Below, piece by piece: positions 3,674-61,720 of a DNA stretch of 64,000 nt; within the stretch, counting starts at the first letter, position 1; every line of letters begins with the position of its first letter. The notes beneath the pieces were generated by a model. It made no database searches. It was not told the origin of the DNA and saw only the letters and a list, made by a program, of their open reading frames with translations. The position numbers and the translations under genes are program-made. The DNA comes from Ulota crispa (lineage: Eukaryota > Streptophyta > Bryopsida > Orthotrichales > Orthotrichaceae), in NCBI GenBank assembly GCA_963920765.1, contig OY987242.1:19492002-19556001 (forward strand). Direction: 5' to 3'.

Positions 3674-4596
3674 TTAACCCCTAAAGGACCAAGCAAAGTT
3701 TTCACCAAAAACTCTCCAAAACCGCCATTTTTAGAGCATCAACCAAATTTGAAAACAAAAACGTTTTTATGCATATGTGGTCGTAGGATCTTGTAGAAGA
3801 ATAGGTTTAGTAGATGTGGAATAAATTTCAGAGGTTTCCGCTGTATGGATTGGAAGATAGAATGGTTTGAATATTCAAAACGTCTTGTGAAAAATCGGGC
3901 AGCTACCCTTCAAAAGGTGAAATTCCTAAGAAAAAAAGACGCATGGGTGGTACTTCTCTAAATTCCTTATTCCACCTAAGTAAAGTACATGTCAAAAAAG
4001 TTTCAAATCATTTGGAATTGTATAACATATGGAAAAAAATTAGTAAGTAAAAAGAAGTAGAGAATGATTCAAAACCTAAAATTGTCAAGAATTTAATTAT
4101 GAAAATGAGAAATGCCAATCCCAATGGTCATAATGTTGTAATAAACAATCTACATCCTCTAGTTTTGTTTTTTTCCAAAATGTTGAAAATTGAGCAAAAT
4201 AAAGGACTTCAAAGTTTATTTTAGAGTAGAGAATCCATAATTGCCAACAAACAAAATATCCTCATAACTATCATCTCGTTGATAAAAACGGAATGGTTCA
4301 AAGCTTTCTATATTCACATAAATCTCTTAAACCAATATGAAATTTTTGTTTTTGAAAAAAGTGATTTTAAAAAATCTATCTAGGTTGCTTGACAAACATA
4401 AATAACAACATATTAGGCCATAACTTTTTACTCATAATTCCAAAAGTCATGAAATTTATTGCACATGAAAGATAACCCTTGTTCCCACATTCTGTTAAAA
4501 TTTTAGCCTAAAAAATGAAAATCTCCAATCATAAGTACCTGCCTAAAATTGCTATGTTGCTAAAATAGGAGGTTTGGTCTTTTAGGGGTCAGTTAA
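3674..4596. repeat. TTAA-bordered inverted-repeat element
   Basis: The left end is TTAA followed by CCCCTAAAGGACCAAGC, the A-type end. The right end is GGTCTTTTAGGGG followed by a degenerate TCAGTTAA. Internal blocks such as GTAAGTAAAAAGAAGTAGAG and AATAAAGGACTTCAAAG are shared with the elements at 25009, 29388 and 59992. It is about 0.91 kb and non-coding. Confidence 0.75.
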
Positions 4597-4779
4597 TGTT
4601 CATCAAACCAAATGAATATTTTGTTTTAAAATATTTATAGATCAAGAAAGAATTTACACTAGAATAAATAAAATGTTTTACAGCATTTTAGAGTTGATGA
4701 AAGTTTGTTAGTTATAAAAAGTATAGAAAACCGATAAAATAATGCAACACATATCTTTTACAAATAATGTCGATTTTGT

Positions 4780-4780
<1 letters not shown>

Positions 4781-4828
<48 letters not shown>
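4781..4828 (+). repeat. Poly(A) tract, 48 nt
   Basis: An uninterrupted run of 48 A lies 56 bp before a candidate exon. It may be a retrotransposition scar or simple slippage; there are no diagnostic flanks. Confidence 0.9.
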
Positions 4829-4830
<2 letters not shown>

Positions 4831-4883
4831 CATCTCGTGTATCTACTTGTAATGAACATGTGCCTTTTTTTTTTTTTTTGTAG

Positions 4884-5768: not shown

Positions 5769-5958
5769 TTAACCCCTGAATGGCACAAACACCCCCTATG
5801 GCCATATGTTGGAGTTCAAGGGTATTCAAGCTACCTCACAGCTTTTTCAGGATCCAGTGTATTTAAGAAAGTTATGGCCGATCCTTAGATGGAGCAAAAT
5901 TTGTATTATACGGATATGGGTATGTACCTCTGGAGCCCAAGGGCCGTTCAGGGATTAA
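5769..5958. repeat. Short TTAA-bordered element, 182 bp core
   Basis: TTAA then CCCCTGAATGGCAC at the left, and GGGCCGTTCAGGG then ATTAA at the right, give a short inverted-repeat element with TTAA on both sides. It belongs to the same broad family as the larger CCCCTAAAGG elements. Confidence 0.65.
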
Positions 5959-6450: not shown

Positions 6451-7404
6451 TTAACCCCTAAAGGATCAACTATCCCCTCGAGGGACAAATGGATTTCAGG
6501 CATGTACCTACAGCTAATCTATTTTTTGTGATTTTTGAAACTTGTATTGAAGATGGGGAATTCAAAGATCTACGTAGGCAACTAATTCTTTCTTCATTAA
6601 AACATTAATTGAAGAAGTTATGCATGAATTTTTGAAAAAGGGCGAGGGCGGGCAGGGCAAAAAATAAATCAAAATTGCATTTTTTTTTTTTTAAATCTGA
6701 AATTAGTTCTTTAGAACTACACAATTGTGGGAATCCTTAAATCATTCAATTTTGATTGATGAGATGAAAGTTATGAGAAGTTTTAGTTTGCTGGTAGGTA
6801 TGGGACTCCCAAACCTCCATTCTTTTTGCTTCTTGTAAAATTTGTTGCTTTCCTTTTTTGAGCTCTTTGTGTGTTTTTTTTTTTTTTTTGAATTTTTTTT
6901 TCCAAGTTGTAGTAGACTAAGATTCCTTGGTTTTCATCGTTTGGATCGAAGTAATTCAGATATCTAAATTTTACATAAGTTCTTCAATTTTGCCTAGTGT
7001 ATATGCAAATTTCATGCCCTTACAACATTGCAGGATTTTACAAAGTATGATCCACACCTCCAATTCATTTGAAATTTCTCCCACACTTACCTAACTTGTC
7101 TTCTACATGGAAAAATAAACCTCAGCTTTGCGTTGAGCAATTTTTTTAATATAGGAGGCGTCTTCTGAAGTTTTTGGGCAGCACGGAAAAAAACTTTTTT
7201 TTGCACTTTGGATGTCAATATCTCACTCCTCTACTTCTAGAATGAGCTGAAATTTTTCCCTCAAGTACCTCCCATAATCTAGGGCAAGATCTTACGGTTG
7301 AATTTCCAAAAAAGCTTTTCTTCCTACCTTTCTACTTATTCCTCCAAAAGTGGCAGTTTTCAATGATTTTTGAAGAAAAAAAGACTTGATCCTTTAGGGG
7401 TTAA
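6451..7404. repeat. TTAA-bordered element with B and A ends
   Basis: The left end TTAA-CCCCTAAAGGATCAAC is followed by the B module, recognisable by GGGACAAATGG and GGCATGTACCTA. The right end is the A module, GATCCTTTAGGGG-TTAA. The core is 946 bp. On the minus strand around 6780-6960 it carries a decayed version of the coding-like segment also present at 46229-46441 and 53061-53252 (FDPN.. then NQGILVYYNLEKK). Here that segment is interrupted by a long A/T run. Confidence 0.8.
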
Positions 7405-7747
7405 CGTCTTTTGTCCAGAAAACATTTCTAGTTGTTTCCTACCACTTTTGATTAAATTGTCATTCGTGAATCTTGATAAATTTCTGTATGATCTAGTTTT
7501 TTACTGAAGCCAAATTTTGTTAAATATGTATGGTGTCAGCCTTTCAGGATGAGTACCAAAAATAGTTTTCCTAGTACTTTTGTGATAAGATTGGTGAAGA
7601 ATCTTCTTTTCCAAATAGCCATAGAATAGAAGTGTTGACAACTGTAATTTTTATAGAATTAACTTGCTTTCTACTAAAAGCAGTTTCAAATACTTTGAAT
7701 ATGTTAACTTAAATAATCGTAACAAACGAATGGTATTCTTTTTTATG

Positions 7748-8630
7748 TACAGTACCAAAAAGAAAGAGTACATAACACTCTTTTATGGCATCTAAAGTAA
7801 GTATAACTACTTATAACATAAAATATAATTGACGTTTTATTCTCGCATTTTTAATATGCAATCTTCATGCAATCTTGATCAAACGTATCAAATTTCAGTT
7901 ACTAAAACTCAAAATCCTATTTTTGGTAAATGATTTTGTGTCAAAATCACGGTTTTACAAGAAAATTGATTAATAAATAGTGGTGATGAATTTTTGAGAT
8001 TTGATTGCATGGATATGTAGGAAACATCCATATACACATCTTCCTTTCAAACAAACATTTCCAAAAAATTCAAAATTCCTTATGTAGAGGTTTTAATGTT
8101 AGAGTGATTATGACCAAATTTAGTAAAATACACATTTCTTTATGGAAATTAGTTTTTGGCAAAAAAAACATATCATCATGTTTAAAGGTACAAACTTAAT
8201 CACAGTGTATGAGTCAAATAACAAAAACTAACTTCCATAAAGAAATGTGTATTTTACTAAATTTGGTCATAATCACTCTAACATTAAAATCTCTACACAA
8301 GGAATTTTGAATTTTTTTGGAAATGTTTGTTTGAAAGGAAGATGTGTGTATGGATGTCTCTTACATATCCATGCAATCAAATCTCAAAAATTCATCACCA
8401 CTATTTGTTAATCAACTTTCTTGTAAAACCATGAGATTGACACAAAACCATTTACCAAAAATAGGATTTTGAGTTTTAGTAACTGAAATTTGATAGGCTC
8501 AATCAAGATTGCATGAGGATTGCACATTAAAAATGTGAGAATGAAATGTTTGTTATATTCTTTGTTATACATACTTGTTTGGATGCCATAAAAGGGTGTT
8601 ATGTACTCTTTCTTTTGGGTATTGTACCCA
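7748..8630. repeat. Large foldback element 1 of a head-to-tail trio
   Basis: Inverted arms of about 440 bp meet near 8192. The left outer end GTACCAAAAAGAAAGAGTAC is repeated inverted near 8606-8630. Inside, TTTGATTGCATGGATATGTA is mirrored near 8370. The core is shared with the two following palindromes and with 21226-22101. No protein of its own is apparent; the short frames are arm translations. Confidence 0.85.
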
Positions 8631-9168
8631 AAAGAAAGAGTACATAAGTCCCACTCATAGAATTCATAAAAGTTGGTATAACAAAGAACATAATTGGCAT
8701 TTTATCCTCAGATTTTTTGTATGTGATCCTCGTGCAATCATGATCAAGCATACCAAATTTCAGTTACTAAAAACCAAAATTCTATTTTTTGTAAAAAAAT
8801 TTGTGTCAAAATCAGGGTTTTACAAGAAAGTAGATTAAAAAACATTGGTGATGAATTTTTGAGATTTGATTGCATGGATATGTAAGAGACATCCATACAC
8901 ACATCTTTGTTTCAAACAAACATTTCCAATAAGTTTCAAAATTCCTTCTATAGAGATTTTAATGTTACGGTGATCATGACCAAATTTTTTAAATTTTATA
9001 TTTCTTTACGGATTTTTTTTTTAAAAATTTGACTCGGACATTGTGATTAAGTTTGTACCTTTAAACATGATGATATGTTTGTTTTGCCAAAAACTAATTT
9101 ATTTATAGTACAAGCTTCTTCGAATCCCATAAGAGGGACTTATGTACTCTTTCTTTAGGGTACTATAC
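8631..9168. repeat. Foldback element 2 of the trio, shortened right arm
   Basis: The left arm begins CCAAAAGAAAGAGTACATAA and runs through the same core as element 1. The right arm ends GGGACTTATGTACTCTTTCT but lacks much of the mirrored interior, so an internal deletion is likely. Confidence 0.75.
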
Positions 9169-10393: not shown

Positions 10394-10703
10394 GGGAAAA
10401 TTTTGTGGATACCCCTGAAGTTTGCAATAGTTTCATAGATATCTCTACTTTTTCAGAAATTTCACAGATATCCCTAGACCAAAATTTTCAAGTGTTTTTT
10501 GTTGTGCATGGCACTTTTTTTTTCTTTATACACACATAACAAGAAAAAACTAATGTGCACACAAAATTAAGAAGGAAAGTGACATGCACAACAAAAAAAA
10601 AATGCTTAATAATTTTGGTCCACGGGTATCTGTGAAATTTCTGAAAAAGTAGGAGTATTTGTGAAATTATTGCAAACTTCAGGGGTATCCATGAAATTTT
10701 CCC
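10394..10703. repeat. Foldback element, 310 bp
   Basis: GGGAAAATTTTGTGGATACC at the left is mirrored by GGTATCCATGAAATTTTCCC at the right, with long arms around a centre near 10548. A decayed half copy occurs at 55262-55350. Confidence 0.85.
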
Positions 10704-10992: not shown

Positions 10993-11313
10993 TGAAGTAT
11001 TGTATTTTCAAAAAAGATCATTTTTACAATGACACATTTCATGTGATTTTTGTTTGTTTAATTTATGTTTTTATTTTAAAGGTGTCAATAATAAATTTTG
11101 TAATTTAGCTTGCATCATGGATTTTCTTTCAAAAAATGAGAAGAGTATTTTCATGTTGTATGCAAACCTTCAAAAATGAGATTCAAATTAAATTGAAACT
11201 TGTACATTTAAATTTTAAATTCAATAATCTTAACATACAACAAATGAATTCTTGTAGATTGTTGTTTATAAGCTCTTTGAAGTCTCAAACATTATTTGTT
11301 TTTCTTTTAGATA

Positions 11314-16886: not shown

Positions 16887-17288
16887 GGGAATGCCTATAG
16901 AGACACCCACAGTTGCTGCATGGACACCCCTATAGCCCAGCCTATTAAATTTGAGATTACTATTATGTTAAATTATGAAATAAAATCAAAACAATATTTT
17001 AGCGCACATATACATCTACAAGCACAGGGAACATATAACAAATATGTCTCATTTGTGACATGATCAAGAGTTAAACTTACAAATGAAGGGAGCAATTAGT
17101 TTAACTCTTGATCATGTCACAAATGAGACATAATTTTTATATGTTCCCTACGCTTGTGGACACAAATGTGCACTAAAATATTGTTTTGATTTTATTTCAT
17201 ATATCAACGTAAAAATAATCTTAAATTTAATAGGTTGGACTACAAGGGTGTCCACGTAGCAACTAGAGATGTCTCCCTAATTATTCCC
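16887..17288. repeat. Foldback element, ~400 bp
   Basis: Arms meet near 17088. GTGACATGATCAAGAGTTAA is mirrored exactly as TTAACTCTTGATCATGTCAC, and CCTATTAAATTT and GTGGACACCC recur inverted at 17230-17260. It is non-coding. Confidence 0.85.
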
Positions 17289-17547: not shown

Positions 17548-17787
17548 TTAACTCTTAAAAGACCGAGGAACCCTTTGCAGTCAATACAATATTTAGTATT
17601 TTCTTGTATTTGGAATGCATCCACACCTTTTTTACATTTGAGATCAACAAAGAAATTAGAATATAGATCAATGCGGTTCTAGTGAGCTAGTCAAGATCCC
17701 AAATTAAAACTTTTTATTGGTAGCAAATGTCAGTTATACAACAGCATATTTACTATGTAATACGTAGAGCGGTCCTTTAAGGGTTAA
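17548..17787. repeat. Short TTAA-bordered element, 232 bp core
   Basis: TTAA-CTCTTAAAAGACC at the left and GGTCCTTTAAGGG-TTAA at the right. The interior is an inverted copy of the element at 28251-28482, for example ATTGGTAGCAAATG here and CATTTGCTACCAAT there. Confidence 0.8.
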
Positions 17788-20968: not shown

Positions 20969-21222
20969 GTACAGTACAGTACTGTACAATGGGGGGACAA
21001 AAAGATTGGGAAATTTCAACCTAACATCCAACTTCCCACAAATCTATTCTTATGAGACTCCGAGCTAAAATCAAAAATCAAACTTGAAGATGTTATGTTG
21101 TACTTGAAGACATTATGCATTTTCAAACTTCATTATAGTCTTTCGGGTCTCAAATGAATGGATCTGTGGAGAGTTGGGTACTTGGGTGTTGGGCTGAGAT
21201 TTCTCAATTTTTTTGTCCCCCC
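20969..21222. repeat. Short inverted-repeat element beside the cyclophilin promoter
   Basis: GTACAGTACTGTAC precedes GGGGGGACAAAAAGATTG at 20991, and TTTTTTTGTCCCCCC closes the element at 21222. The ends match those of the palindrome at 9169-10056. It begins only about 130-150 bp upstream of the cyclophilin start codon, so it probably marks the outer limit of the core promoter. Confidence 0.7.
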
Positions 21223-21225
21223 TTC

Positions 21226-22548: not shown

Positions 22549-23461
22549 TTAACCCTTAGAGACCACCAAACCATATTTTGGTTCAGGAGAGTAGTTTTTG
22601 GCCTATACAGTAAATTTGCTCAACAATTTGGAAAATGATCTTGAAGAATGCTTGTGAGCACAAGAATTTTGCATCCAACCCAAAAAACGACAATGGAATT
22701 GGATATGTGAGTTGATAAATAATGGTTTTTATATATCATGGTCTCAAAATACGTTTCCATATTTGGTTAAAGATGGATCAAAGCAACAACACAATGCATC
22801 AAACGTCCAAGAAGAATGCCACATTTCAATTGTGCTATCTTAAAAAATTCAATTTGCTTAAGGCATACGCTTGTATTGTTTCTCTATATGGTAGTAGTAC
22901 AATTGTAGTATTTGATATTCCATTGAAATGATTCTATCATTTTATTTTTAAAAACAAATCATCCAACATTTAAGGCCAATTCTTGATTGCTTTCACTGAT
23001 TGGATTTTCCATAACACTTATCAAATTTCTTGTAGAATTGTTTTAGGGTAGCAAAGAAAATGGGATTTTTTACCCTTTTTGTCCACATAGTTACACCTTG
23101 TGATTGCTATTTTTGCCTATTTTGTGTGAAACTAGTCTTGTTGGAAAGGTGGGAAACCTTGCTTTCTAGAAATGTAAGGCTCTTCTCAATCAAAGCTTGC
23201 ATGAAGCCTGAACATTCAAACCACACAAGCATGAAAAACTAGAGATTTTCCATGTACGGCTCACTCAATCATTATAATATTTCACCTCCAATGGTAGATC
23301 TAGCTAAAATTTTGGTGGTATACAACAGACAAGTTGTCCTTCTCAATTGTACGGTTGGATTATTCAAATTGGGTCCATATTTGAGTCAAATGCACATCTA
23401 ATTTTATTGCCCCCGTTTCTAGTGGAATTTGGGAAAATGTGTGTGGTCTTTAAAGGGTTAA
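22549..23461. repeat. TTAA-bordered element, 905 bp core
   Basis: TTAA-CCCTTAGAGACCACC at the left and GGTCTTTAAAGGG-TTAA at the right. The interior is not obviously shared with the A/B elements, so this is a divergent member with similar ends. Confidence 0.6.
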
Positions 23462-24185: not shown

Positions 24186-24315
24186 CACTACAAGGAAACC
24201 ATAGTCAAATCTACAAAAAGTTGACAAAGATTGTGACCTAATCAACAGTATACTGTAGATTAGGTCACAATCTTTGTCAACATTTTGTAGATTTGACCAT
24301 GGTTTCCTTGTAGTG
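24186..24315. mobile_element. CACTA-type miniature element, 130 bp
   Basis: Ends CACTACAAGGAAACCAT and its exact inverse ATGGTTTCCTTGTAGTG, flanked on each side by TAT. The CACTA terminus and a 3 bp target duplication are the hallmarks of the CACTA (En/Spm) superfamily. The arms, about 60 nt, are nearly perfect inverted repeats, so it is effectively a hairpin and looks young. Confidence 0.9.
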
Positions 24316-28250: not shown

Positions 28251-28482
28251 TTAACCCTTAAACGATCATAGGACATAGTATATACGCTGAAGTATAATTG
28301 TCATTTGCTACCAATAAGAAATTTTAATTTGGGATCTCAAGTAGCTCACTCGAACCACATTGATCTATTCTCCAACTTCTTTGTTGGTCTCAAATGTAGT
28401 AAAGGTGTAGATGCATTCTAAATACAAGAAAAATACCCGTATTGTACTGGTTTCAAAGGGCCTTTTGTTCTTTCAGGGTTAA
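28251..28482. repeat. Short TTAA-bordered element, 224 bp core
   Basis: TTAA-CCCTTAAACGATC at the left and TCTTTCAGGG-TTAA at the right. It is an inverted copy of 17548-17787, and lies about 450 bp upstream of the FLX-like start codon. Confidence 0.75.
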
Positions 28483-28931: not shown

Positions 28932-31900
28932 ATGTCTAGTCGAAACAGAATGGGTGCCCAAGGAGTGCTTAATGCACGGGCTAGTGCCCTCAATAATCCT
29001 TCATTGGGGCTTCTGAGGCAAAATCCTGGACTGTATGGCAACCAAAATCGACCTCAAAACATGGGTCCACCACCATTAATGAATGGTCCGCCGGGTGTCC
29101 TTTTGCTTGAACAGAAAGTTAACTCACAACATACCGAGCTTCAAAGGCTTTTAACAGAAAATCAACGTCTTGCTGCCACACATGTGGCACTTCGACAAGA
29201 ATTGGCTGCAGCACAGCAAGAGGTCCAAAGGATGCAATCCATGGTTCAAGGGCTTCAATCTGACAAGGAGGTTCAAATTAGGTACTTTTAATAGCAAATA
29301 TATTATGCCTTAGGCACCAATTGATATCAAAAATGTGATATTAGATATACAAAATACTAAAAGCAACACCCACATTTGTGCATTTGCTTAACCCCTCAAG
29401 GATCAAGCCATTTTTTCTGTGAAAAACACAGAAAACTGCCACTTTTGGAGAAGCAAGTACAATGGTAAGAAAAAAAGTTTTTTACAAGAATTCAACCGTA
29501 AGATCTTGCAGTAGACTACAAGAGGTACACGTGGTAAAAAATTCAGCTTAATTTACACAAAAATGAGTGAGATATTTACATTTGAATTGCGGAAATGAGT
29601 TTTTTTTTGCTCCTGCCCAAAAATTTCAAAAGGCTTTGACCACTCTTAAATCAAAAAAACTACTCTACACAAAGTTGAGGTTTATTTTTCCCATGTAGGA
29701 GACCAAGTTAGGTATGTGTGGGAAAATTTTCAAATCAATTGGAACTATACAACACATGGGAAAAAATAGTAAGTAAAAAGAAGTAGAGAATGAGTCAAAA
29801 CACTAAATTGTTAAGAATTTAATTATAAAAATAAAAAATGCAAATCCCAAGGGTTATAATGTTGTGATAAACATTCTACATCCTTTAGTTTTGCTTTTTT
29901 TCAAAATATTGAAAATTGAGTAAAATAAAGGACTTCAAAGTTTATTTTAGAGTAGAGAATCTAGAATTGCCCACAAACAAAAACTCCTCATAACTTTCAT
30001 TGCATTTATCATAATTGAATGATTCAATGCTCCCCACGTCTATATAAGTCTAAAGAACCTATTTCAGATTTCCATTTGAAAAAAATGAAATGTTTAAAGA
30101 AATTTTTGGCTGCCCCTCGAACACCATTTTTCATAATTTCATGCATTACTTCATCATCAAATGTCAAAATGAAGAAAAAATTAGGTGCCCAAGTAGATTT
30201 TTGAATTCCACACCTTTAATAAAAGTTTTAAAAATTCACAAAAAGTAAATTAGGCATAAGTACATGCCCAAAATCCCATTTGTCCCCCGAGGGGACTTTG
30301 GTCCTTTAGGGGTTAATTAGCAATAACCATAACCTCTTTCTTAAAAAATGCATGCTTTCTATGGTTTGCTACTTAGTATTTTATTATATTATATTATAAC
30401 AATTAACTGTACACCTTCCACATCTTGCTTAACTTAGAATATTATAATTTTGTATTATAAAAAAATGATTCTTAAATTCAGATCTCTCTTGGAGAAATCT
30501 GCCAACCTTGAGGCTGAATTGAGAGCAACAGAACCTCTTAAAACTGATGTTCTTCAAGCAAGAAGTGATTGTCAAAAATTACACCAGCACTCGCAAGAGC
30601 TTGGACAGCAAGTGCGAACCTTAAACACAGAATTGCAGCGGGCACGTGCTGATGTGCAACTCATTCCCACTCTTCGGAGTGAAATTGAAACACTTCGATC
30701 AGAACTTCAGCGAGCTAGGTATTTTTATAGTTCATTTTTTATTCTGTTAGTTGCATCCAACTTTGGAATATGTCTCTTATAGGGTTCTACGCTATGTAAT
30801 GCATTTTGTGAAGATAAATACATTTATATGTACACATGAATTTGTAAATTACACTTCTTTTTAAAAGAAACAATAGTAATTGAATGATTTTTTCATAAAT
30901 CAAGCACCATAGATTGTAAAACACTTCTTTAAGGTAGTATACTTGAGTGATGTATTTTTTTAATACCTATTTTGGATGCAGAAATGCTTTTGAGTATGAA
31001 AAGAAGGCAAATGCTGAGCAACTTGACCAACGACAAGCAATGGAAAAGAATTTGGTCAGCATGGCAAGAGATGTGGAGAAGCTCCGTGCAGAACTCACAA
31101 ATGCAGAGAAGCGACAACGTCTTAACCCAGGAGGTAAAGTGTTACATAAACATAAACAAGAAAACTTTCACTAGTAACCTTCTATCTTGTAGATAGTTTT
31201 TTTATATTTTTATTGAATGTAATGATACTATGTGGTGGTCACTACATAAAGTTGACATTCAACTATTCTTTCATTAGGAGTTGGCTCATACAATGGGATA
31301 TTTCCTAGTTCTGATCTTTCATACAATGCTTTGCAACAACAAGTCTTTGGTGATAACTATAGTCTTCACTCTCAGGTATTTTTTTGTTTGTTTTTTACTA
31401 TGATTGCTATTTATTTTTGCATTTAATCAACTCTATACTCAATGATTATATTATCTATTGCTTACTTTAAGTGACTCATAAATGAAAAGCACCCGGGTAT
31501 GTTTACATCATTCTTCATACTACACTGATTTCTTATGTCAATTTTAAAAATATTCCATATCTATCCACTACTATTGTATATTTATCTTATTATGGACCTT
31601 ACCTCAACAATTGTATAGGCATGCTTGCTTTTTTTTAGGAATTTTCTGTAGTGTCAATGATTTTTGTTTCTTTATAACCATCATTTACAAATTTTGATGG
31701 ACTCTTTGTGCATTGTTTGCCTAATATGAACATCAAGGAGGCAATGACAAAATTTCCCAATTCTTGTTTCAATATGTTTTGAAATTTTTAGAAAATATTC
31801 TTCAATCTCATAATTTGTAAACTTTCAAGTTTACTAATATCTATGTTTTTCTTGAAGTAGATTTTTAAAAAGTTATGGTCATGGTGCTGCACTTGTGAGC

Positions 31901-37002: not shown

Positions 37003-37239
37003 TTAACTCTTGAGCGCCGGAGTGATAGGATCTTGTTGTTGGGGCCCACAACTTTATCTCAAAATTTCTCTTGATTGGTATAGTGAAAAGGATCGAAGCT
37101 AGTCCCCATTAGCAAAGAAGGTAGTCCTTTTTCAAATCCTACAGTCACTTTTTCTGAATGTAATTTTCTAAGCTGTGGTGGCCATTAAACCCCCATTTTC
37201 TCCTAAATCTTAAAATAACTTTGAGCACTCAGGGGTTAA
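37003..37239. repeat. Short TTAA-bordered GAGCGCC-type element, 229 bp core
   Basis: TTAA-CTCTTGAGCGCCGG at the left and TTGAGCACTCAGGGG-TTAA at the right. Confidence 0.75.
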
Positions 37240-45934: not shown

Positions 45935-46893
45935 TTAATTCTTAAAGGATTTTTGTCCCCTTGGGGGACAACTGGAATTTTAGGTATGTACCTATGGTTA
46001 AACTACTTTGTGTGATTTTTTAAACTTCTATTGAGAATGGGGAATTCAAAGATCTATGTGGGCATTTATTTTTTTCTTCATTTTGACATTTATTGAAGAA
46101 GTTATGCATGAATTTCTAGAAAATGGGGGAGGGCATGCAGCCCAAAAACTTCTTTAAAAATTGCATTTTTTTAGAATAAAAATCTGAAATTGGTTCTTTT
46201 TATTTACACATATGCAAGAAGCTTTGAATCATTCAATTTGATTGATGAGTGAGACTTTATGAGAAGTTTTAGTTTGCAGGTAGATATGGGACTCCCAAAC
46301 CTCCATTCCTTTTGCCTCTTGTAATATTTGGTCCTTTACTTTTTTGAGCTCTTTGCGTATTTTGTTCTTTGACTCTTTTTTTTCCAAGTTGTAATAGACT
46401 AAGATTCCTTGGCTTTTACCATTTGGATCAAAGTAAATCAAATTTTTACATAAATCCTCTAGTTTTGCTTAGTGTATATGCAAATTTCATGGCCTTATGG
46501 CACTAGAGGATTTTACAAAGTATGATTAACACCTCCGATTTATTTCAAAATTCTCCCACACATACCTAACTTGGTCTTCTACATAGAGAAAATAGACCTC
46601 AACTTTGCATAGAGCAATTTTTTTGATAAAGGAGAGGTCAAAGGCTTTTGAAAATTTAGGACAGCAAGGAAAAAAACTTTGAGTTTGACTTCATATGTCA
46701 ACATCTCACTCCTCTACATTTAGAATGAGCTGATTTTTGATCCCACTAGTATCGCCCATAGTTGAGGGGAAGACCCTACGGTTGGATTTATTTAAAAAAA
46801 AAAACAATTTTCCTACCTTTCTATTCATTGCCCTATAAGTGGTATTTTTCAAAGACTTTTGCAGAAAAAAGGGCTTGGTCCTTTAGGGGTTAA
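45935..46893. repeat. TTAA-bordered element with internal coding-like segment
   Basis: Left B end TTAA-TTCTTAAAGGATTTTTGTCC and right A end GGTCCTTTAGGGG-TTAA; 951 bp core. On the minus strand, 46229-46441 is open for 70 codons and reads IYFDPNGKSQGILVYYNL, then KELKKVKDQILQEAKGMEVW. The same peptide is recognisable at 53061-53252. The source of this segment is unknown. Confidence 0.85.
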
Positions 46894-48590: not shown

Positions 48591-49340
48591 TTAACCCTTA
48601 AAGGTCCAAGCAGTGTTTTTTTTGGTAACATAGCGATTTTGGGCAGCTCACTACAAATGAGGTTTTCATTTGTTTTTTTTGAAATTTTCACACATGATGT
48701 GCCCAAGGAGTAGCTTTAAGGTCCAATAATTTTCATAATTTTTGACTACATGACCTAGAAGTTGTTGCATGATATGTTGTTTTCTTTGTTTGGCGGGTAG
48801 TCCGGGCAGATCAAAAACTTCTTTCAAAAGTTTTTTTTTTGTTTTTTTTGTTTTTTGAAATTGGTTCTTTAGATTCATGTATATGTGAAAAGCTTTGGAT
48901 CATACAATTCTAATTTAAGAGGTGAAATTTATGAGAAGTTTTAGTTTGTGGGTAGGTGTGGTTTTAGAGAGACTCTGTACCTACTTACAAACTAAAATTT
49001 CTCATAACTTTCACCTCATAAATCAAAATCAAGTGACTCAAAGCTCCTCATATATATATATATATACATATACATACATATAAATATATATATATATATA
49101 TATATTTTAAAGAAATTTTCTGATCTGCCCAAACTGCCCGCCAAACAAAGAAAACAACATATCATGCAACAATTTCTAAGTCATGTAGTTATAACTTATG
49201 AAAATTGTTGAACCTTAAAGCTACTCCTTGGGCACATCATGTGTGAAAATTTAAAAAAAAAAAATGAAAACCCCATTTGTAATGAGCTGCTCAAAATCAC
49301 TATGTTGCCAAAAAACATTGCTTGGGCCTTTAGGGGTTAA
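48591..49340. repeat. TTAA-bordered foldback element, 742 bp core
   Basis: TTAA-CCCTTAAAGGTCCAAGCA at the left is mirrored by GGGCCTTTAGGGG-TTAA at the right. The arms mirror throughout with a centre near 48966: ACATAGCGATTTTGGGCAGC against the inverse of GCTGCTCAAAATCACTATGT. It has a third kind of end module, also seen at the right end of 3674-4596 (GCTATGTTGCTAAAA). Confidence 0.9.
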
Positions 49341-50280: not shown

Positions 50281-51146
50281 TTAACCCCTAAAGGACTTGA
50301 TCCATTTTGAAATGGTCAAACTTCATGTCAAAGTTCAACTTTGCCTTTTAAAGTGTATTCAAACAATAAGTTTATAATTTTATTGTTTGAAACTCTGAAT
50401 GATATATCACTGCAAGAAATATTAGTTTGATTCATGACAATTTGTAATTGTTATCATTTTTTTTCAAAAAATGAGCATAAATAAGTTAAATAGCAAAAAA
50501 AATCCAAATTACTTGAACTTTTTTCTTAAGGTACAAGTAGCATTAAAGACTAGTGTGAAAAAATTTCAATTGGTTACTTTAAATTTTACACCCAAAACTA
50601 CCACAACCAAGAATTTAAAGTCAAATTTGATTATCAAACCAAGTTTATCCTTATTTTTTATTTGGTTAATTTATAAAATTTTGATATTTTTTGCTAGAAG
50701 ACACATTCATTTTCTATTTATGCTATTTTTTTTGATAAATTTGATGGAGAATTTGAAGTATTGTGATTTTTTAAAACTAAATGTGGAAATGAAATTATAT
50801 CAATTAGAATACATATTAAAAGAATCTATAATTTCTACCATAAATGAATGGTAGAATGAGAAACATAGTTTTGTAGTTCAAATTTAAAATGCATTTAAAG
50901 AGTAGAAAATATGAATGAAAAACACACCATATTGTGTTATTTGGATTCTAATACTTGAGCTTTAAATGGCAATAACTTTTTTGATTTTTGCCATTTTTCA
51001 AAAAAATTAGATGAAATAGAAAGGAAACTTGTCAAGTTTCATTTTCTTAATTTGAACCACATACCAAAATTTGATATTTTGAAAGTCACAATCAAGGTTG
51101 ACCAAGGTGCATCCACTTTTTGGATGCACGGACCTTTAAGGGTTAA
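50281..51146. repeat. TTAA-bordered element, 858 bp core
   Basis: TTAA-CCCCTAAAGGACTTGATCC at the left and CGGACCTTTAAGGG-TTAA at the right. The interior differs from the A/B copies. A 127-codon frame (50471-50854) has extreme AT-driven composition and is not believed to be a gene. Confidence 0.75.
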
Positions 51147-51864: not shown

Positions 51865-53540
51865 TTAACTCCTAAACGCCCAAGCCCATTTTTTCTGAAA
51901 CAACATTGAAACCTGCCATTTTCAGTCATTTGACCCTAAGAACAAGATTTGCAGTTATTCTACAAATCTAACCATAGGCTCTTGCATTAGAATATGCAGG
52001 ATGCCATAGTGAAACTTTCATGAACTTTGCTGTTGAGATATATGAGCATTTGAGGTTAGTATAGAAAGTTTTTTTTGACCTCTGCCTAGAATTTTCAAGT
52101 CTCTTTGATCACATATTGTGAACAATTTTTGTATTGTGGATGTGGGAGAGATTTGTTCAACATGTTTGAAATTATGTCAAGCATATTTTCACAAATATTC
52201 ATGATCAACACAAACTTGGAACACTCCCTTCATGGGCCCGCATAGCAAGCTTGTGCTTGAGAATCTCATTATACTAAGTTTTTTTGCAAATCAAATTTCC
52301 AAGGGTAGGGTCATGCAAAGTTGATTTTCATTGGATGTTCTTAAAATTGTTACACAAGGTGTATTCTCTAAGTGGGAATGTAAATTTTTCCCCAATTTGA
52401 TGGCTAATTCAAAGTTATGATACCCAAAAAAATTTGGGCACTTGGGCAATTTGGGCATTTTTGGAGAATCTTATGCTCAAATTCTCATTGACTTTTGAAA
52501 TTTGGCATGTATGCTACTAATAAAGTATGGTATACAATTGTCAAGAAATAAAAATGAATTGAGCTCACATCACATTCTAAGAAGAGTCAAACTTTGTAAA
52601 CCAAGCCTTTTTTTGGTGAGAGTCACTGAAAATTGCCACTTTTGGGGGAATGAGTAGAAAGGTAGGAAATAAAGTTTTTTTCTGGAAATTCAACCGTAAG
52701 ATCTTGCCTTAGACTATGGGAGTAATTGTGAGGAAAAAATCAGCTCATTTTAGATGTAGAGGAGTGAGATATTGTCATCTAAAGTGAAAAAAAAAGCTTT
52801 TTCCCTGCTGCCCAAAAATTTCAAATGCCTTTGACAACTCCTATATCAAAAAAACTGCTCTATGTAAAGTTGAGGTTTACTTTTCTCATGTAGAAGACTA
52901 AGTTAGGTATGAGTGTGGGAGAATTTCAAAATAAATTGGGGGTGAAAATCATACTTTGTAAAATTTTGTAATGCCATAAGGTCATGAAATTTACATATAT
53001 GCACTAGGCAAAACTGGAGGATTTATGTAAAATTTAGAAATGCGGATTATTATGATTTGAATGGTGAAAAGCCAAGGAATCTTAGTCTACTACAACTTGG
53101 AAAAAAAGAGAGTCAAAACACAAATACACAAAGAGCTCAAAAAAGTAAAGGACCAAATATTACGAGCGGCAAAAGGAATGGAGGTTTGGAAGTCCCATAT
53201 CTACTTGCAAACTAAAACTTCTCATAAAGTCTCACCCATCAATCAAAATTGAATGACTCAAAGCTTCCCGCATATGTATAAATATAAAGAACCAATTTCA
53301 GATTTTTATTATGAAAATATGAAATTTGTAAAGAAGTTTTTGGATTGCTTGCCCTCCTCTGTTTTTCAATAATTCATGCATTACTTCTTCAATAAATTTT
53401 GGAATGAAGAAAAATTAGATGCCCATGCAGATCTTTGAATTCCCCATTTTCCATAAAAGTTTCAAAAAATCACACAAAGTAGTTTAGATGTAGGTACATG
53501 TCCAAAATCCCATTTGTCCCCCAAAGGGACAATGGTCCTT
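51865..53540. repeat. Composite TTAA-family element
   Basis: TTAA-CTCCTAAACGCCCAAGCCC opens the element and GGTCCTTTAGGGG-TTAA (B end) closes it. A second, internal A-type end starts near 52597 (ACCAAGCCTTTTTTTGGTGA, then AAAATTGCCACTTTTGGGG). The right part is thus a near-complete A/B copy joined to another partial copy. On the plus strand 53061-53252 is open and encodes the KSQGILVYYNLEKK segment shared with 46229-46441. Confidence 0.7.
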
Positions 53541-53754
53541 TAGGGGTTAACTATGTCAAGGCAATTTCAAGAAAGAAAAATTTCTTCTAACTTCAAGCCC
53601 CATTATTTTTCAAATATATATATTTGAAGCTCCCAATTTTTTTTCACATATTCCAAATGTTTGTCTCTCATTTTTCACTATTCAATTTTCAAATAGAAGA
53701 CTTTTGCATTGCAGAAGAAATCATGAAAGAATGACTACTATATTGCCAATTCAC

Positions 53755-54156
53755 TTAACCTCCTTGCATTGGAGGATGATTTACACTAACCTAGATTCTT
53801 TATTTGCTTCTGAAAATTTTCATGAATGTACCTAACATCATATACTTATGAATAGTCAAACAACTCATTTTTATGTAGAGCAAAAAAATTATTCTATGAG
53901 GGCCCAAAGTTTGTTGACCTTGTTTTGCAGTAATGATATAGAGTTGTTTTTCTCACTTCAAACTTTACAATCTTACAATCCACGCGGTCAAATGAGGTGA
54001 AAATTTTGTGTATACAATGATTCATTTTTTTAACATGCTTTTGTATAGTTGAAATTCAAAAAAAGAGTTTTTGTTTTCAATTTTGGGCAATGCACTAAAA
54101 GTTGGCAGTTTCTGAGATTTTTTCTCTAAAAACACCCTTGGTCCTTTAGGGGTTAA
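53755..54156. repeat. TTAA-family relic, right A end
   Basis: The right end CTTGGTCCTTTAGGGG-TTAA at 54141-54156 is clear. The left boundary at 53755 (TTAACCTCCTTGC) is uncertain. Confidence 0.5.
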
Positions 54157-56140: not shown

Positions 56141-56142
56141 CC

Positions 56143-56310
56143 TCCAGATGAAATGGTGTGGAATATTTCACACCATTTCATCCACCAGATGAAATGGTGT
56201 GAAATATTCCACACCCATCTTTAGCTATGGGGACACTTGGTTGAATTTATTAGAGAGTTTATGAAAGAAAGGCTTAGTTTAATGCACATACGTCGATGTG
56301 GGGACCAGCC
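56143..56310. repeat. Three-arm short palindrome joined to a repeat relic
   Basis: GATGAAATGGTGTGGAATAT and its inverse form a 36 bp near-perfect palindrome at 56147-56182. A third arm, GATGAAATGGTGTGAAATAT, starts at 56189. It continues into the inverted counterpart of 16665-16780, including ACATACGTCGATGTGG. Confidence 0.75.
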
Positions 56311-57664
56311 ATGTCACAAAAATTTTAAGAAAAAAAAAGAGATGAAGTTCGTGGATGATACCTGAAGAGAGGGAAAGGCGGCCTTTCTTCATGCTACTGA
56401 ATGTTATGAAGTGCAAAAGCATGGATTTGCTTGGTTGATGCCTATTTATGAGATAATTCTGAGCTTTATTTGTTAAACAATGAGAAAATTAATCACTGTC
56501 ATTAGTTTGTAGAGTCTTAAAAGCCACCATTTTTGTTTTTCATGTGGTTACAAATTCATGTAAACACATTTAACTTTGGTGTACTATTACCATGTAGTAT
56601 TGAAGGGAAAAACTCATTACAAAATAGTTACTAATAATGTCAATCACAGTGATTCCAAGAAACACTAGTACTACATTGTGTCCCCTTCCCCTGAGCGAGT
56701 GGTATTGGGATCGTATCTTTTGCTTAACTAAGTCCTTTTGACCTGAAATTTCAAAGTAAGGAAAACATCAAAGTTACTGATGTTCCATAATTTTTTGATA
56801 TTTTTAAAAATTATTTTACTATTTATAATTGAATATTGATTGCATGTCTACCTAAATGGTTTTGGGGGTTTTCAATATTGCATTGGGTCAAAAAATGCAA
56901 ATTTTTGGCCACAAATCAAGGTAGTGATTCAAGAGGCATCATTACACAAATTCATAGACTAGTTTCACAAATCTCAAAATTTTATGCCTTGCACGTTCTC
57001 TCAAAGTGGGCATCCTATCTCCTTGCCTAGGTGATAGATAAAAATCTTCCTAGAAAAAGTAATTTCATCATTTCAAGCCAATCAAGGAGGCCACAAATGG
57101 CCAATTTTTTGTTTTGTTTTTTTTGGTTTTTTTGTAATTACTAAGAATTAAAACATGGCAGCTTAGAAATTCTGGTAATTTCTACTCCACCTGCCTATGT
57201 AGTACTTCCCTCCATTTATTGGCACTACGTAGTACCACTAACCACTAACATCTTTTGAGGATTTGAATATTTTTTTCATCCATTTATTGAATTGCCATTA
57301 TTGATAGTTGACCTTCCTAACTGACATGCCACGTGCCTTATTCCCAATAGATTTGGGATGGGAGGGATGATTCAAATTTCCAGTGCAAGGATGTTGTGTA
57401 GTACTTACAGTACTTGTAGCACTGCTAGTACTACACCCAAAAAGAGGTATTTTGAGACAGAATTGTGAAGTGTTTCTTGCAACTTTCCATCAACAACATA
57501 AAACCGGATTATCAAATTTTAGGATTTGATAAGCTTTGTAAACTCCCACACTTGTATGCTACCCTACAACCCTATACAATCTTGTGAGCTAAGTCTATAA
57601 AGTTCTTTAAAGAGGTATGCACTTTGGATATCCAGGGCAAGAGTTTATTTTAAGGAATTGATAT
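56311..57664. other. Intergenic with possible repeat words
   Basis: AGTACTAC words recur at 56668, 57200-57235 and 57395-57435, and may mark an uncharacterised element. No gene seen. Confidence 0.35.
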
Positions 57665-58063
57665 ATGCACATGGGGGGTTGATAATTGCACACCACCCCC
57701 TCCCCCTTGGGATAAATTTTAGATTTCTACCATCATAAAGCTGAATTTGAGAAATTTGAATTTAGATTTGGATTTAGAGACCATGACTTAGTTTTGAATT
57801 GTGAAAACAGTTGTAATTCAACAACACCCAATGAAAAAGTTTATCTTTTTTTACAAACAAAAGTAAATGTAACACTTTTCCTCCTAGCTAAACATTTTCA
57901 TTGGGTGTTATTGGATTGCAACTTTTTATGGTTCTAAACAAAATCATGGTCTCTTAGTCCAAACCTAAATTCAAAATCCCCAAATTCAGCTTTATGATGG
58001 TAGAAATCTCAAAATTACCCAAAAGGGGTGGGGGTGTGCAAATATCAACCCCCTGGTGTGCAT
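57665..58063. repeat. Foldback element, ~400 bp, complete copy
   Basis: ATGCACATGGGGGGTTGATA at the left mirrors TCAACCCCCTGGTGTGCAT at the right; the centre is near 57865 and is flanked by CACCCAATGAAAAAG and CATTTTCATTGGGTG. The right arm matches 58-265 at the start of the window. Confidence 0.88.
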
Positions 58064-58142
58064 TATCAGTTCCCTTATTTTAAAGGTTAAGCACTTTGGT
58101 TATGATCTTGCAAGTTGTAACATGTTATTTATCAGTATATTA

Positions 58143-58566
58143 TACTCCCTCTGTCCCATTATAAACCTCCAAAAAATTTCTCCATGAGGGATTAACTATA
58201 ATTTTAGTCATCATGCTAGTGACAAATGCATTCTAAAATTAATATACCACCTACCAAATGTGTGCAAAATCTCTAGCTTTGATGTTGCCATTTGGGCACC
58301 CAAATTCCATGCAAAAAGTACCATATTTGTACATGTTGTTAGCTCCTCATTATTGATAATTTAAAGATTAGTAGCAACAATGATACCTCATAGGGGCAAA
58401 GCCAAGCCTGTTAAAAGAGGAATGCTCTTTAATTGCTTAACTTGCCCCCATGAGATCATTGGACATGACAAATGCTTTCTCAGAAATTGAAAGTAGCAAA
58501 AGGGAGCTTTTTAGTGGGACAAAAACTATGCCTAATTTGGAGCTTTATATTGGGACAGAGGGAGTA
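58143..58566. mobile_element. Stowaway-like (Tc1/mariner) miniature element
   Basis: TA-CTCCCTCTGTCCCATTATAA at the left and TATTGGGACAGAGGGAG-TA at the right; 420 bp. Same family as 33134-33715 but without the internal duplication. A 80-codon frame at its right end is a read-through of the element and is not a gene. Confidence 0.92.
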
Positions 58567-59991
58567 GCATATTTTGACTACGCAGCACTCATTGGTTGCT
58601 GCAGTGCAAAAGGAAAAGCCACACCCCATTATTGCAATCTAAACAAGCCTGTCTTCACATTCTGCAGATCAAAAATTAAAACTTGTACTTAACTAAATCA
58701 ATTGTTTTTTTTAAATCCCAGCAAGTCATTGTGAAATGTGAAAGTAGATTTCCAAGTGAAATTTTTGGAGTACACGAACGAGAGAGTGAATATTCTTTTC
58801 ACTGTACCTTTCTAACATGTCAAGTGGCAAAAGAAATAGGGAAGTTTGTGGTTGGCCCAATTACATCATTCATTTTACCCTAGCTAGGAATATATTCTTG
58901 AGGGTATTATAGAAACGGTGCCTTTAGATAAAAATAAAACAAAAGTTTAACAACTTTGATCAACCAATAACACAAATGTAAATTCAACTTTGTTGTTTTC
59001 TCTTAGAAGAGTTGCATGAACAAAATCCACATGTTACAATGAAGTCATTTTTGTTTTAAAATTATGTATTCATTACGTTCATTGAGTATGCGGATTCTTT
59101 TAGGTATCAATTATTTGCGAACTTCAAACATAGGAGGAGACAAGGGTGTAGGCCATTAGAATGCTCTTGGTGCGTGTGTTTGAGCATGGACAAAACATTT
59201 TACAAAAAAGAAAACTTCACATTGCACAAACACTATAATAAGATGGATGAATTTAACACTTTTTTTAACAAAAATTTGAAAATTAGCAATTAAACAAGAC
59301 TTGCACAATATCTTGTTTTTTTGAACACAAGTCTCAAAAGACTATCTACCTTGTTATGTTTAAAAATGCCAGAAATATAAAAAAAAAACAAGTTGCAGAG
59401 AGTATCCACAAGAGTGTCACTTCAATAATAATAAAAAACATCCAAAATATAGTCCATAATTGTGTTGAAGATATGTTAGATTCCTTAAACAATTGAAGTG
59501 GTAATAAATAAAATAAAATAATGTCCAAATAGATTGCAAGAAAAAAACACTACTAGCAAAGATAAAATTGGATCAAACAAGTTGCTCTTCCCCTCAATAC
59601 AAACAATTCATATTGTGACTGGAAGGACAAGAAGTTAAGTTATTGTATCTATTCCGTCCTTTGAAGTAGACAATTTTGAAAACTTGTAGGCATCTTTTTA
59701 GGACAACTCACTAATTAGAGCTCTATACAAGTGCTAATTTGGAAACTATTTGGTATATGTATGCACATGTAGTACATGTGCACATGCTTTGTGCACATTG
59801 GACATGTGTAGGTAATGTAACATTCAACATCATAGAAAATCAATGTCTCATAATTAGTCTAAACTCTAACTTTGATGCACAGTAATTTTGGTCCTCATTT
59901 AAAACCAAAATAGTAATTGACTTCATCACAATGACCCTTTTCATATATTATTGGGGAGCATTTGGCGTTTTGTTAACTTTCTAACACATGG
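58567..59991. other. AT-rich intergenic
   Basis: No gene or clear repeat seen. Confidence 0.5.
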
Positions 59992-61720
59992 TTAACTCCT
60001 AAAGGACCAATTGTCCCCTTGGAGGACAAATGGTATTTTGGGCATGTACCTTTGGATAAGCTACTTTTTGTAATTTTTGAAAACTTTTATTGAAGTTGGG
60101 GAATTCAAAGACCTACGTGGGCATTTTATTTTTTCATTTTGACATTTGACAAAGAAGTTATGCATGAATTTATGAAAATTTGGGGAGGACTGTTTGTCCG
60201 AGTAGCCCAAATAACTTCTTTAAAATTTACATTTAAAAAAAATAAAAACTTGGAATTGGTTCTTTAGATTTTTTTATATGTGGGGAGCTTTGAATCATTC
60301 ATTTTCAATCAATGACATCAAAGTTATGAGGAGTTTTTGTTTGCAGGCAGTTATGGATTTTCTACTCTAACTCCATATTTGTTAATTTGGGAAGAAACCT
60401 TGATTTTGGGAATGAGCTAGGTTCAAGGTGACCACCTTAACCCCTAAATGCCCAAGCAACCAAATTTGGGTCGCAAGGAAACTTTGAAGATGAATAAAAT
60501 CTTATCAAATATTTATTTTCAGTATTTTTTTTCAATATAAGTTTGTTTTTGAGTCTACTTTCAACATTAAAGATCTGATTTTGAAAATAAAAGTTGATGG
60601 TTTTTCTACTTGAGATTTTGTACAAGGGTGTCCACTGCAATCTTGAGTTTTTTAGTGTTGGAAGATCTTGAAAATGAGCCTCAAATACACTAAAGCTTGG
60701 AGAAAAATCCTCATTAGAAATCCATTTAAAAATAATGTAGGAGTAGATTTTCAAAACCGTAAACTGATTTGAGTTAGACATGTAATGGCCTTAAACCTCA
60801 TATTTTTATGGTAACCAACTTTTTGGATTTGACATGTGAAATGAGGATTGGAAGAATTTAAGTCACTTTTGCAATTTTAACACCCTCATGTTCAAACATT
60901 ATAATCTTTCAAACTATAAGTGATATTGTTGTGTTTTCTTTTTCCATGTAATCTCTAACATGTTTAGCTTAAATTTGTACAATTGCAATGGAAAAAAACT
61001 TGGTGGAATTCATGAAGAGGTTGATTGATTGTTCAGTTTCATGGAAAGTCCAAGAAGCTCAGATAGGGCTTGGGCATTTAGGGATTAAACCAAGCTCTAG
61101 GTTTAAGGTGAAATACAACTTGGGAATCTAGTTTTCCTAATTTATTGAATATGGCGTTCTCTAAAATAAACTTTGAAGTCCTTTATTTTACTCAATTTTC
61201 AATCTTTTGGAAAAATAATTCAATCAAAGGAAGTAGATTGTTTATTACAACACTATAACCATTGAGATTTGAATTTTTCATTTCCATAATTCAATTCTTA
61301 ACAATTTAGTGTTTTGACTCATTCTCTACTTTTTTTTTACTTACTATTTTTTTCCCATATGTTGTGTAGTTTCAATTGATTTGAAAATTCTCCCACATAT
61401 ACCTAACTTGATCTCCTACATGGTAAATTAAAAGCACAATTTTGGGTAGAGCAAAATTTTTCATGTAAAGGTGGTCAAAAGTTTCTAAAATTTATGGAGT
61501 GCAGGGAATATAACTTTTTTTTCTCACTTCAGATGTAAATATCTCCCTCCTCCCCATTTAGAATGACATGATTTTTTTCCCACAAGCACCTCTTCTAGTC
61601 TAAGGCAAGATCCTACAGTTGGATTTCCAAAAAAAAGAAAACCACCTTCTTACTCATCCCCTAAAAATGGTAATTTTCAATGATTTTGGTAGAAAAAAGG
61701 GCTTGATCCTTAGGGATTAA
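59992..61720. repeat. TTAA-bordered A/B element, interrupted by a nested insertion
   Basis: Left B end TTAA-CTCCTAAAGGACCAATTG with CCCTTGGAGGACAAATGG. Right A end GCTTGATCCTTAGGGA-TTAA. Shared core blocks (CTTTGAAGTCCTTTATTTTA and others) appear on the right side of the inserted element at 60437-61088. Confidence 0.85.
60437..61088. repeat. Inner TTAA-bordered element, 644 bp core
   Basis: TTAA-CCCCTAAATGCCCAAGC at the left and GCTTGGGCATTTAGGGA-TTAA at the right, lying wholly inside the 59992-61720 element. Its ends are of the TGCCCAAGC subtype. A 114-codon minus-strand frame here is not believed to be a gene. Confidence 0.82.

What the first reader, a model, noticed from the sequence alone, without database searches (positions are those of the whole stretch)
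3674..61720. A large TTAA-bordered inverted-repeat family with CCCCTAAAGG ends, possibly piggyBac-like, in a plant genome
About twenty elements, relics or solo ends begin with TTAA then CCC(C/T)TAAAGGACC (or TGAGCGCCC, TAAATGCCCAAGC variants); most intact copies end with the inverse and TTAA. Examples: 6451-7404, 17548-17787, 22549-23461, 26092-26818, 28251-28482, 29388-30316, 37003-37239, 45935-46893, 48591-49340, 50281-51146, 60437-61088. A palindromic TTAA on both borders cannot be a TTA or TAA 3 bp duplication, but does fit a 4 bp TTAA duplication, the target of piggyBac-type transposases, whose ends also start with CCC. Such elements are not usual in land plants. Alternatively TTAA is part of the inverted repeat.
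Basis: partly seen in the sequence, partly recalled or inferred. Interest (0 to 1): 0.75.

Follow-up and report, generated by a model that had tools for sequence, protein, structure and literature searches.

The report
piggyBac-type mini-transposons flooding a moss genome
Many small, gene-less jumping-DNA elements in what looks like a moss genome insert at TTAA sites, have ends like those of piggyBac transposons that carry a transposase in the same genome, and one group has become a near mirror-image hairpin found in hundreds of places.

Summary
Ends within 3 mismatches of TTAACCC(C/T)TAAAGGACC occur 26 times in the window (0.30 expected); all 11 listed pairs have TTAA at both borders. Genome-wide the exact 17-mer occurs 4623+4613 times, reversed control 0. 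The piggyBac reading is supported. One unoccupied target copy is 94% identical and keeps a single TTAA with flanks abutting; at a second target 9 of 9 unoccupied copies have exactly 4 bp there, though not TTAA; a third is unclear. The genome holds at least 120 piggyBac transposase matches. Two transposase loci have TTAACCCYT at both ends, two more at the right end. The Kolobok superfamily has purine ends (PMC6004289) and does not fit. No transposase with exact CCCCTAAAGGACC ends was found; intermediates link the end types. The host is probably a moss. One subfamily is a whole-length palindrome with two like ends. Its shared centre spacer points to one origin and later copying (540 centre matches), although wild-type piggyBat cannot use two identical ends (PMC11707139). 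Known kind, unusual host, informative variant.

The parts
3674..4592 (+). probable ~920 bp TTAA element, left end exact, right end decayed (CTGACCCCTAAAAGACC)
5769..5958 (.). 190 bp TTAA element, ends TTAACCCCTGAATGGC / TTAATCCCTGAACGGC
6451..7404 (+). 954 bp element of the main CCCCTAAAGG family; end A at left (box GGGACAAA at base 32), end B at right
17548..17787 (.). 240 bp short TTAA element, same family as 28251-28482 (84% over 189 bp)
22549..23461 (.). 913 bp family, ends TTAACCCTTAGAGACC / TTAACCCTTTAAAGACC; ends of this family are close to the right ends of the piggyBac loci L060 and L005
26092..26818 (.). 727 bp whole-length palindrome (87% to its own reverse complement), two copies of end A
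28251..28482 (.). 232 bp short TTAA element
29388..30316 (-). 929 bp element of the main family, between two open frames of an FLX-like coiled-coil gene (28920-29285 and 30438-30776)
   Evidence: gene name recalled
37003..37239 (.). 237 bp TTAA element with CTCTTGAGCGCC / CCCCTGAGTGCT ends
45935..46893 (+). 959 bp element of the main family (80% to 6451-7404)
48591..49340 (.). 750 bp whole-length palindrome (80%), core related to the 727 bp family, different arms and centre spacer
50281..51146 (.). 866 bp TTAA element, not palindromic
60437..61088 (.). 652 bp TTAA element, CCCCTAAATGCC ends, about 650 bp class
53534..53550 (-). solo end, exact 17-mer
54140..54156 (-). solo end, exact 17-mer
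59992..60008 (+). solo end, 1 mismatch

Best explanation
These are non-autonomous (MITE-like) DNA transposons of the piggyBac superfamily in a moss. piggyBac-type transposases encoded elsewhere in the genome recognise the TTAACCCYT... inverted ends, cut the element out and insert it at TTAA, so TTAA flanks both sides. Shown: TTAA target with a single TTAA in an unoccupied site; abundant piggyBac transposase matches; transposase-bearing loci with TTAACCCYT ends of the same design. Inferred: that these transposases, or extinct close relatives, moved the CCCCTAAAGGACC elements. A subset became whole-length palindromes carrying the same end twice and multiplied in that form (inferred from a shared centre).
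For: Target: L086 against the joined flanks of the palindromic copy L024, 182/193 identical with one TTAA. Besides the two flanks themselves and 4 short secondary rows, 38 of 38 matches to that target run across the junction; for the 15 that end at or before query base 211 the net length difference is 0 in 7, 1 in 6 and 2 in 2, while the other 23 range from -17 to +15, most at -15. L028 target: 9 of 9 unoccupied copies read have exactly 4 bases. Transposase: 120 PF13843 matches, best E 1.3e-73, a lower bound (116 of 528 candidates scored). L060 matches the solved transposases 6x67 (4e-20; piggyBac by recall) and 9c0f (piggyBat, 6e-17). Catalytic D positions: the first two are invariant in 4 of 4 aligned; the third is D in L003 and L059, N in L060, and outside the part of L001 aligned. 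A cysteine motif like the C-terminal domain occurs in 6 of 12 loci scanned. Link by ends: the L001 and L006 loci (5027 and 5102 bp) have TTAACCCYTSAYYGCC at both ends. That pattern occurs 627+678 times, control 0; among its first 100 places, all on C1, 21 face each other within 6 kb, 13 at 637-663 bp and 4 at 952-982 bp. The right end of L005, sought because of L060, was found as TTAACCCTTTAATGACCATGG, close to the 913 bp family ends. Of 29 places with that end type, 3 lie within 2.1 kb of one of 116 listed transposase places, facing it, one of them not used to make the pattern. Variants from CCCCTCATCGCC to CCCCTAAAGGACC followed by ARGGGACRAA: 40 places, control 0 (the pattern was drawn to allow these variants and includes its two source loci). 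A like box begins at base 30-32 of 24 of 122 MITE ends (19 of 61 elements, many of them related copies), with 2 in 71,300 interior positions; its spacing differs from the transposase loci.
Against: No transposase bounded by exact CCCCTAAAGGACC was seen. None of 7 C1 transposases below 21.7 Mb lies within 18 kb of an exact TTAACCCYTSAYYGCC, so many are decayed or of other end types. For L002, L003, L004, L007, L008 and L059 no matching end was found in the DNA fetched, and L060's left end was not found. 26 of 29 places of the L060/L005 end type have no listed transposase within 10 kb. A single TTAA in the empty site cannot tell a 4 bp TTAA from a 2 bp TA duplication at a TTAA target. The L028 unoccupied copies have CCAA or CTAA, not TTAA, and the L055 site is unclear.
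Confidence: 0.92

Rival explanations
1. Kolobok-type (T2-like) elements, the other superfamily considered with TTAA targets.
For: TTAA target site is shared (PMC6004289, passages read).
Against: Kolobok ends begin with purines (RR; AGGRR in T2; same passages); these begin CCC. A THAP-domain search of the genome found 0 matches, but it rang in no control genome either, so it does not show absence. piggyBac transposases are abundant.
Confidence: 0.02
2. Tc1/mariner- or PIF/Harbinger-type MITEs that duplicate TA or TTA/TAA but favour TTAA.
For: A single TTAA in the empty site fits a 2 bp TA duplication inside TTAA as well as a 4 bp one. These transposase families were not searched for here.
Against: TTAA is kept as a block at 29 of 36 ends. 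Transposase loci found with TTAACCCYT ends code DDE_Tnp_1_7.
Confidence: 0.04
3. For the palindromes: they are made again and again by a host process (template switching, inverted duplication) and do not themselves transpose.
For: The window holds nine further whole-length palindromes over 100 bp with other ends, so palindrome formation is general here. Away from the centre, left and right arms do not form separate clades, and the two arms of one copy resemble each other more than shuffled pairs do (0 of 5000 shuffles reach it).
Against: 18 of 18 copies carry one asymmetric centre spacer with 0-2 errors in the same orientation, which the non-palindromic elements lack (at least 7 errors). A flip test on arms without the centre keeps a weak left/right signal (12 of 2000 random flips reach it). 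Within-copy likeness fits gene conversion between arms. A palindromic copy sits in a TTAA site with a known unoccupied copy.
Confidence: 0.15
4. Ordinary repeats with TTAA in their inverted repeat and a target duplication outside it.
For: TTAA is constant at both ends of most copies.
Against: Bases outside TTAA are mixed; unoccupied sites hold one 4 bp block and no outer duplication.
Confidence: 0.02

Closest known systems
CMITEs of Acropora corals (piggyBac MITEs, PMC2872659, passages read)
   Same: TTAA target, CC[C/T]T terminal motif, several families with diverged ends, piggyBac transposases in the genome, adjacent elements
   Different: animal host; CMITE family I shares identical TIRs with an autonomous element (AmiPB1), here only near-identical end types were found for the main family; the word 'palindrom' does not occur in that paper's main text
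PALTTAA2 / PiggyBac repeats of Caenorhabditis (PMC1431705, one passage; palindromic nature recalled from Repbase)
   Same: repeats annotated together with PiggyBac; by recall palindromic with TTAA
   Different: nematode host; sequence not compared here
piggyBac (Trichoplusia) and piggyBat (Myotis), solved transposases 6x67 and 9c0f
   Same: transposase core, catalytic D positions, C-terminal cysteine motif; TTAA + CCC ends by recall and PMC2872659
   Different: in wild-type piggyBat two identical ends are inactive (PMC11707139, passages), whereas a palindromic two-A-end family is present in hundreds of places here; moss copies share an N-terminal stretch (IAKLLGW) and the three fragments bearing it that I scanned against Pfam gave no match (two of them also against NCBIfam)
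T2-MITE / Kolobok of Xenopus (PMC6004289, passages)
   Same: TTAA target, MITE families
   Different: purine-starting termini, THAP transposase

Membership tests
piggyBac superfamily (non-autonomous members) | TTAA target, one copy in the unoccupied site | tested here: met
   L086 single TTAA; L028 9 of 9 with exactly 4 bp but CCAA/CTAA; L055 inconclusive
piggyBac superfamily (non-autonomous members) | terminal motif CC[C/T]T in inverted repeats of about 12-19 bp | tested here: met
   TIR TTAACCCYTAAAGGACC, up to 19 bp exact; motif definition from PMC2872659 passage
piggyBac superfamily (non-autonomous members) | piggyBac transposase in the same genome | tested here: met
   120 PF13843 matches; the 14 control genomes gave 0 but tell little, the only one named in my outputs is a cyanobacterium
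piggyBac superfamily (non-autonomous members) | autonomous copy with the same ends | tested here: inconclusive
   Met in type for the ~650 bp class and nearly for the 913 bp class; for CCCCTAAAGGACC only intermediates
piggyBac transposase (genes elsewhere in the genome) | DDD catalytic residues in the DDE_Tnp_1_7 core | tested here: met
   L060 has N at the third position
piggyBac transposase (genes elsewhere in the genome) | C-terminal cysteine-rich domain | tested here: met
   Motif seen in L002, L004, L005, L006, L007, L059 of 12 loci scanned, of which L057 and L058 are 5' flanks; one extra L004 match on the other strand looks like chance
piggyBac superfamily | precise, footprint-free excision | not testable with these tools
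   Needs excision assays or allelic series
piggyBat as assayed in human cells | different left and right ends needed for transposition | tested here: inconclusive
   A palindromic subfamily with two A ends occurs in hundreds of places; activity not assayed
Kolobok | purine (RR) termini | tested here: not met
   Termini CCC
Kolobok | THAP transposase | tested here: inconclusive
   0 matches, no positive control

The most novel reading that the evidence does not exclude
In this moss lineage a piggyBac-type transposase works on natural elements with two like ends. A palindromic element with one end type duplicated arose once, spread to hundreds of places (540 centre matches) bounded by TTAA, its arms were kept alike by conversion within copies, and related cores came to carry other symmetric arms. 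Evolution would thus have reached a symmetric piggyBac design that wild-type piggyBat does not tolerate and that engineers obtained by doubling the C-terminal domain. The hairpin copies might also be a source of silencing RNA.
Probability: 0.45. Interest if true: 0.65.

Novelty: new member of a known kind. Interest (0 to 1): 0.5.

Why it matters
piggyBac elements are studied mostly in animals. A moss genome in which their MITEs show more than nine thousand perfect ends gives a plant-native set of transposase lineages and end types, and a natural experiment on which end layouts the enzyme can use. The palindromic subfamily bears directly on whether different left and right ends are essential, a question now tested by engineering.

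Tried and rejected
TTAA-pair searches around L059 and L060 gave no convincing pair; the left end of L060 was not found. All-against-all blastn of the 8 best transposase loci printed no match of 150 bp or more, but that run was plus-strand only; both strands, from 100 bp, gave only two stretches of 68-73% between L003 and L004, so boundaries could not be read from copy alignments. Kolobok was considered and disfavoured. Net length differences of +3 to +4 in 25 of 38 L028 target copies looked contrary at first; the junction is gapless for 34 bases each side in the 9 copies read, and the pairwise alignment with L037 places its gaps elsewhere.

A claim withdrawn on checking: a first arms tree put 17 right arms on one side and all left arms, the 950 bp family ends and one right arm on the other (support 0.987). 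With the last 35 bases next to the centre left out, that split vanished: left and right arms mix and the two arms of L011, L013 and L017 are sisters. The single-origin argument now rests on the shared centre spacer; I lowered the novel reading from 0.5 to 0.45 and raised the rival from 0.12 to 0.15 for this reason.

Literature: nine paper searches. The listings on piggyBac with bryophyte, moss, Physcomitrium, Viridiplantae or land plants showed 5 of 5, 20 of 32, 15 of 16, 2 of 2 and 15 of 131 papers; among titles and abstract starts shown I saw no report of piggyBac elements in a moss. The library lacks most subscription journals; Bouallegue et al. 2017 (recalled) is not held. The Niphotrichum moss paper was a false lead: its hits were 'piggybacking'. 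A fern genome paper lists 1230 PiggyBac-annotated copies (PMC6890710, one table passage).
Full report
What was checked. The end motif is far above chance in the window (26 against 0.30 expected) and hugely repeated in the genome: 4623 forward and 4613 reverse exact matches, none for the reversed-letter control. The 11 listed elements plus the 190 bp element at 5769 cover about 7.6 kb, 12% of the window (sum of coordinates).

The host. The window lies in a 275 Mb assembly of 157 contigs. It carries many chlorophyll a/b-binding proteins (56 matches). For the one LHCII protein tested, two long multi-domain chains of entry 9vfj rank first and fourth; the other best solved relatives are 8htu and 7xqp (447 bits), above chains at about 430 bits that are seed-plant by recall and chains at 396 bits and less that are green algal by recall. 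Papers tie these entries to Physcomitrium: 7XQP by name (PMC12589708, one passage) and 8HTU as 'PpPSI-L' (PMC10005731, legends). A plant FLX-like gene (name recalled) lies in the window. A moss is therefore likely, but the species is not known to me.

What the elements are. They form several families, most with the end design TTAACCCYT-NA-NNG-NC. In the 30 loci taken by the 17-mer alone (L027-L056), 15 paired main-family elements passed my filter (length 180-1100, at least 11 of 17 end bases matching, duplicates removed): 14 non-palindromic of 827-963 bp and one palindrome of 748 bp. Other families are about 913, 650, 340-410 and 235 bp. Adjacent elements sometimes share a TTAA, as in L011, L017 and L023, as expected if one inserted into the TTAA border of another.

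Target site. I joined the flanks of occupied elements and looked for unoccupied copies of the same host repeat. For the palindromic copy L024, 38 matches run across the junction besides the two flanks themselves. The one read, L086, is 182 of 193 identical and has exactly one TTAA; two more diverged copies in hand align without a gap, with TTAA (L060) and TCAG (window). For L028, 9 of 9 unoccupied copies read have exactly four bases between the same flanks, CCAA in eight and CTAA in one; the occupied copy must have acquired TTAA by substitution first. For L055 the site lies in an A-run, with 4 bases in 3 of 8 copies and fewer in 5, and is inconclusive. L038 against L045 is gapped and was not pursued. 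A duplication outside TTAA is refuted at two sites. Whether the stagger is 4 bp (TTAA) or 2 bp (TA) cannot be told from empty sites.

The transposase. 120 matches to DDE_Tnp_1_7 were found, a lower bound, most with stop codons inside and ten without. They are diverse: 28-49% amino acid identity in the core comparisons except 68% for the L060/L005 pair. Catalytic positions and the C-terminal cysteine motif are present in several. Two loci could be bounded: 5027 bp (L057+L001) with TTAACCCCTCATCGCC and TTAACCCTTCATTGCC, and 5102 bp (L058+L006) with TTAACCCTTGACCGCC and TTAACCCTTCACCGCC. A third, L060, has a right end TTAACCCTTTAGCGACCATGG. From it I expected a like end beside the related L005, and TTAACCCTTTAATGACCATGG was found there.

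The link between transposase loci and MITEs. The pattern made from the first two loci occurs 627+678 times, control 0. Among its first 100 places, all on C1, 21 face each other within 6 kb: 13 at 637-663 bp, 4 at 952-982 bp, and single pairs at 79, 774, 1386 and 3717 bp. These are MITE families with piggyBac-type ends. The L060/L005 end type is close to the ends of the 913 bp family in the window. It occurs at 29 places, 3 of them facing a transposase within 2.1 kb, one of those independent of the pattern's making; the other 26 have none of the 116 listed places within 10 kb. For the main family, variants from CCCCTCATCGCC to CCCCTAAAGGACC followed by ARGGGACRAA occur at 40 places, control 0. 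That pattern was drawn from the left ends of the two bounded loci, which are 2 of the 40, and was written to allow these variants; two of the 40 carry exact CCCCTAAAGGACC. Against the link: none of 7 C1 transposases in the listed range has an exact TTAACCCYTSAYYGCC within 18 kb, and no exact CCCCTAAAGGACC partner was seen.

Palindromes. 26092-26818 is 87% identical to its own reverse complement over its whole length, and each half matches end A of the 950 bp family at 75-78%. A predicted RNA fold pairs 92% of the bases. Eighteen copies, chosen as best matches to it, carry the same asymmetric centre spacer with 0-2 errors, in one orientation; the non-palindromic elements in hand do not have it (at least 7 errors), and two other palindrome types have other spacers. 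The centre 26-mer with up to 3 mismatches occurs 274+266 times, control 0. This points to one origin followed by copying. The arms tell less: a first tree separated left from right arms, but without the bases next to the centre they mix. A flip test keeps a weak left/right signal (12 of 2000), and own arms resemble each other more than shuffled pairs (0.907 against 0.892; 0 of 5000; closest in 6 of 18 copies), which suggests conversion within copies. Wild-type piggyBat does not transpose with two identical ends, and piggyBac was active on two short like ends when a second cysteine-rich domain was added (PMC11707139, passages read). So these elements suggest an enzyme with looser demands, or enough binding sites in end A. 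This step is inferred; no activity was measured. A nematode precedent of PALTTAA2/PiggyBac repeats exists (PMC1431705, one passage).

Verdict. Real, and piggyBac-type. The kind is known, the host and the scale are unusual for what I could find in print, and the symmetric palindromic subfamily is the part that could teach something new.

Noticed in passing
window 1699-2104, 7733-8643, 8146-9100, 10394-10703, 16887-17288, 20981-21232, 21226-22101, 24186-24315, 57654-58073: Nine further whole-length palindromes over 100 bp without TTAACCC ends, 130-955 bp and 69-95% self-complementary. Ends differ (CACTACAAGG, GTATAGTYGGG, GGGAAT, GGAAYTGATA), so several DNA transposon families seem to have become palindromic in this genome.
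   Followed up: partly
window 28920-30951: FLX-like coiled-coil gene (name recalled) with the 929 bp element 29388-30316 between two coding frames, that is, probably in an intron.
   Followed up: partly
L057, L058, L059, L060 (5' parts): A conserved N-terminal stretch (IAKLLGW or close) shared by diverged piggyBac transposase loci; fragments from L058, L059 and L060 had no Pfam match, those of L058 and L060 no NCBIfam match.
   Followed up: partly
L011, L013, L017 (palindromic copies): The two arms of one copy are each other's closest relatives in the tree, as if converted or re-made from one arm.
   Followed up: partly
G000:C1:1180709-1181995, G000:C8:19570986-19572215: piggyBac-domain matches without stop codons in two pieces (open frames of 563 and 472 aa): candidates for domesticated or intact genes.
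   Followed up: no
G000:C82:25807-32669: Four short chlorophyll a/b-binding matches on one small contig, possibly an algal contaminant.
   Followed up: no
window 11311-12396: Open frame of 362 aa with a lysine-rich first half and a long acidic tail; only a sub-threshold Pfam match.
   Followed up: no
L003 about 3030-3650: Long run of a tandem repeat that reads HTYI in frame, beside a piggyBac transposase.
   Followed up: no
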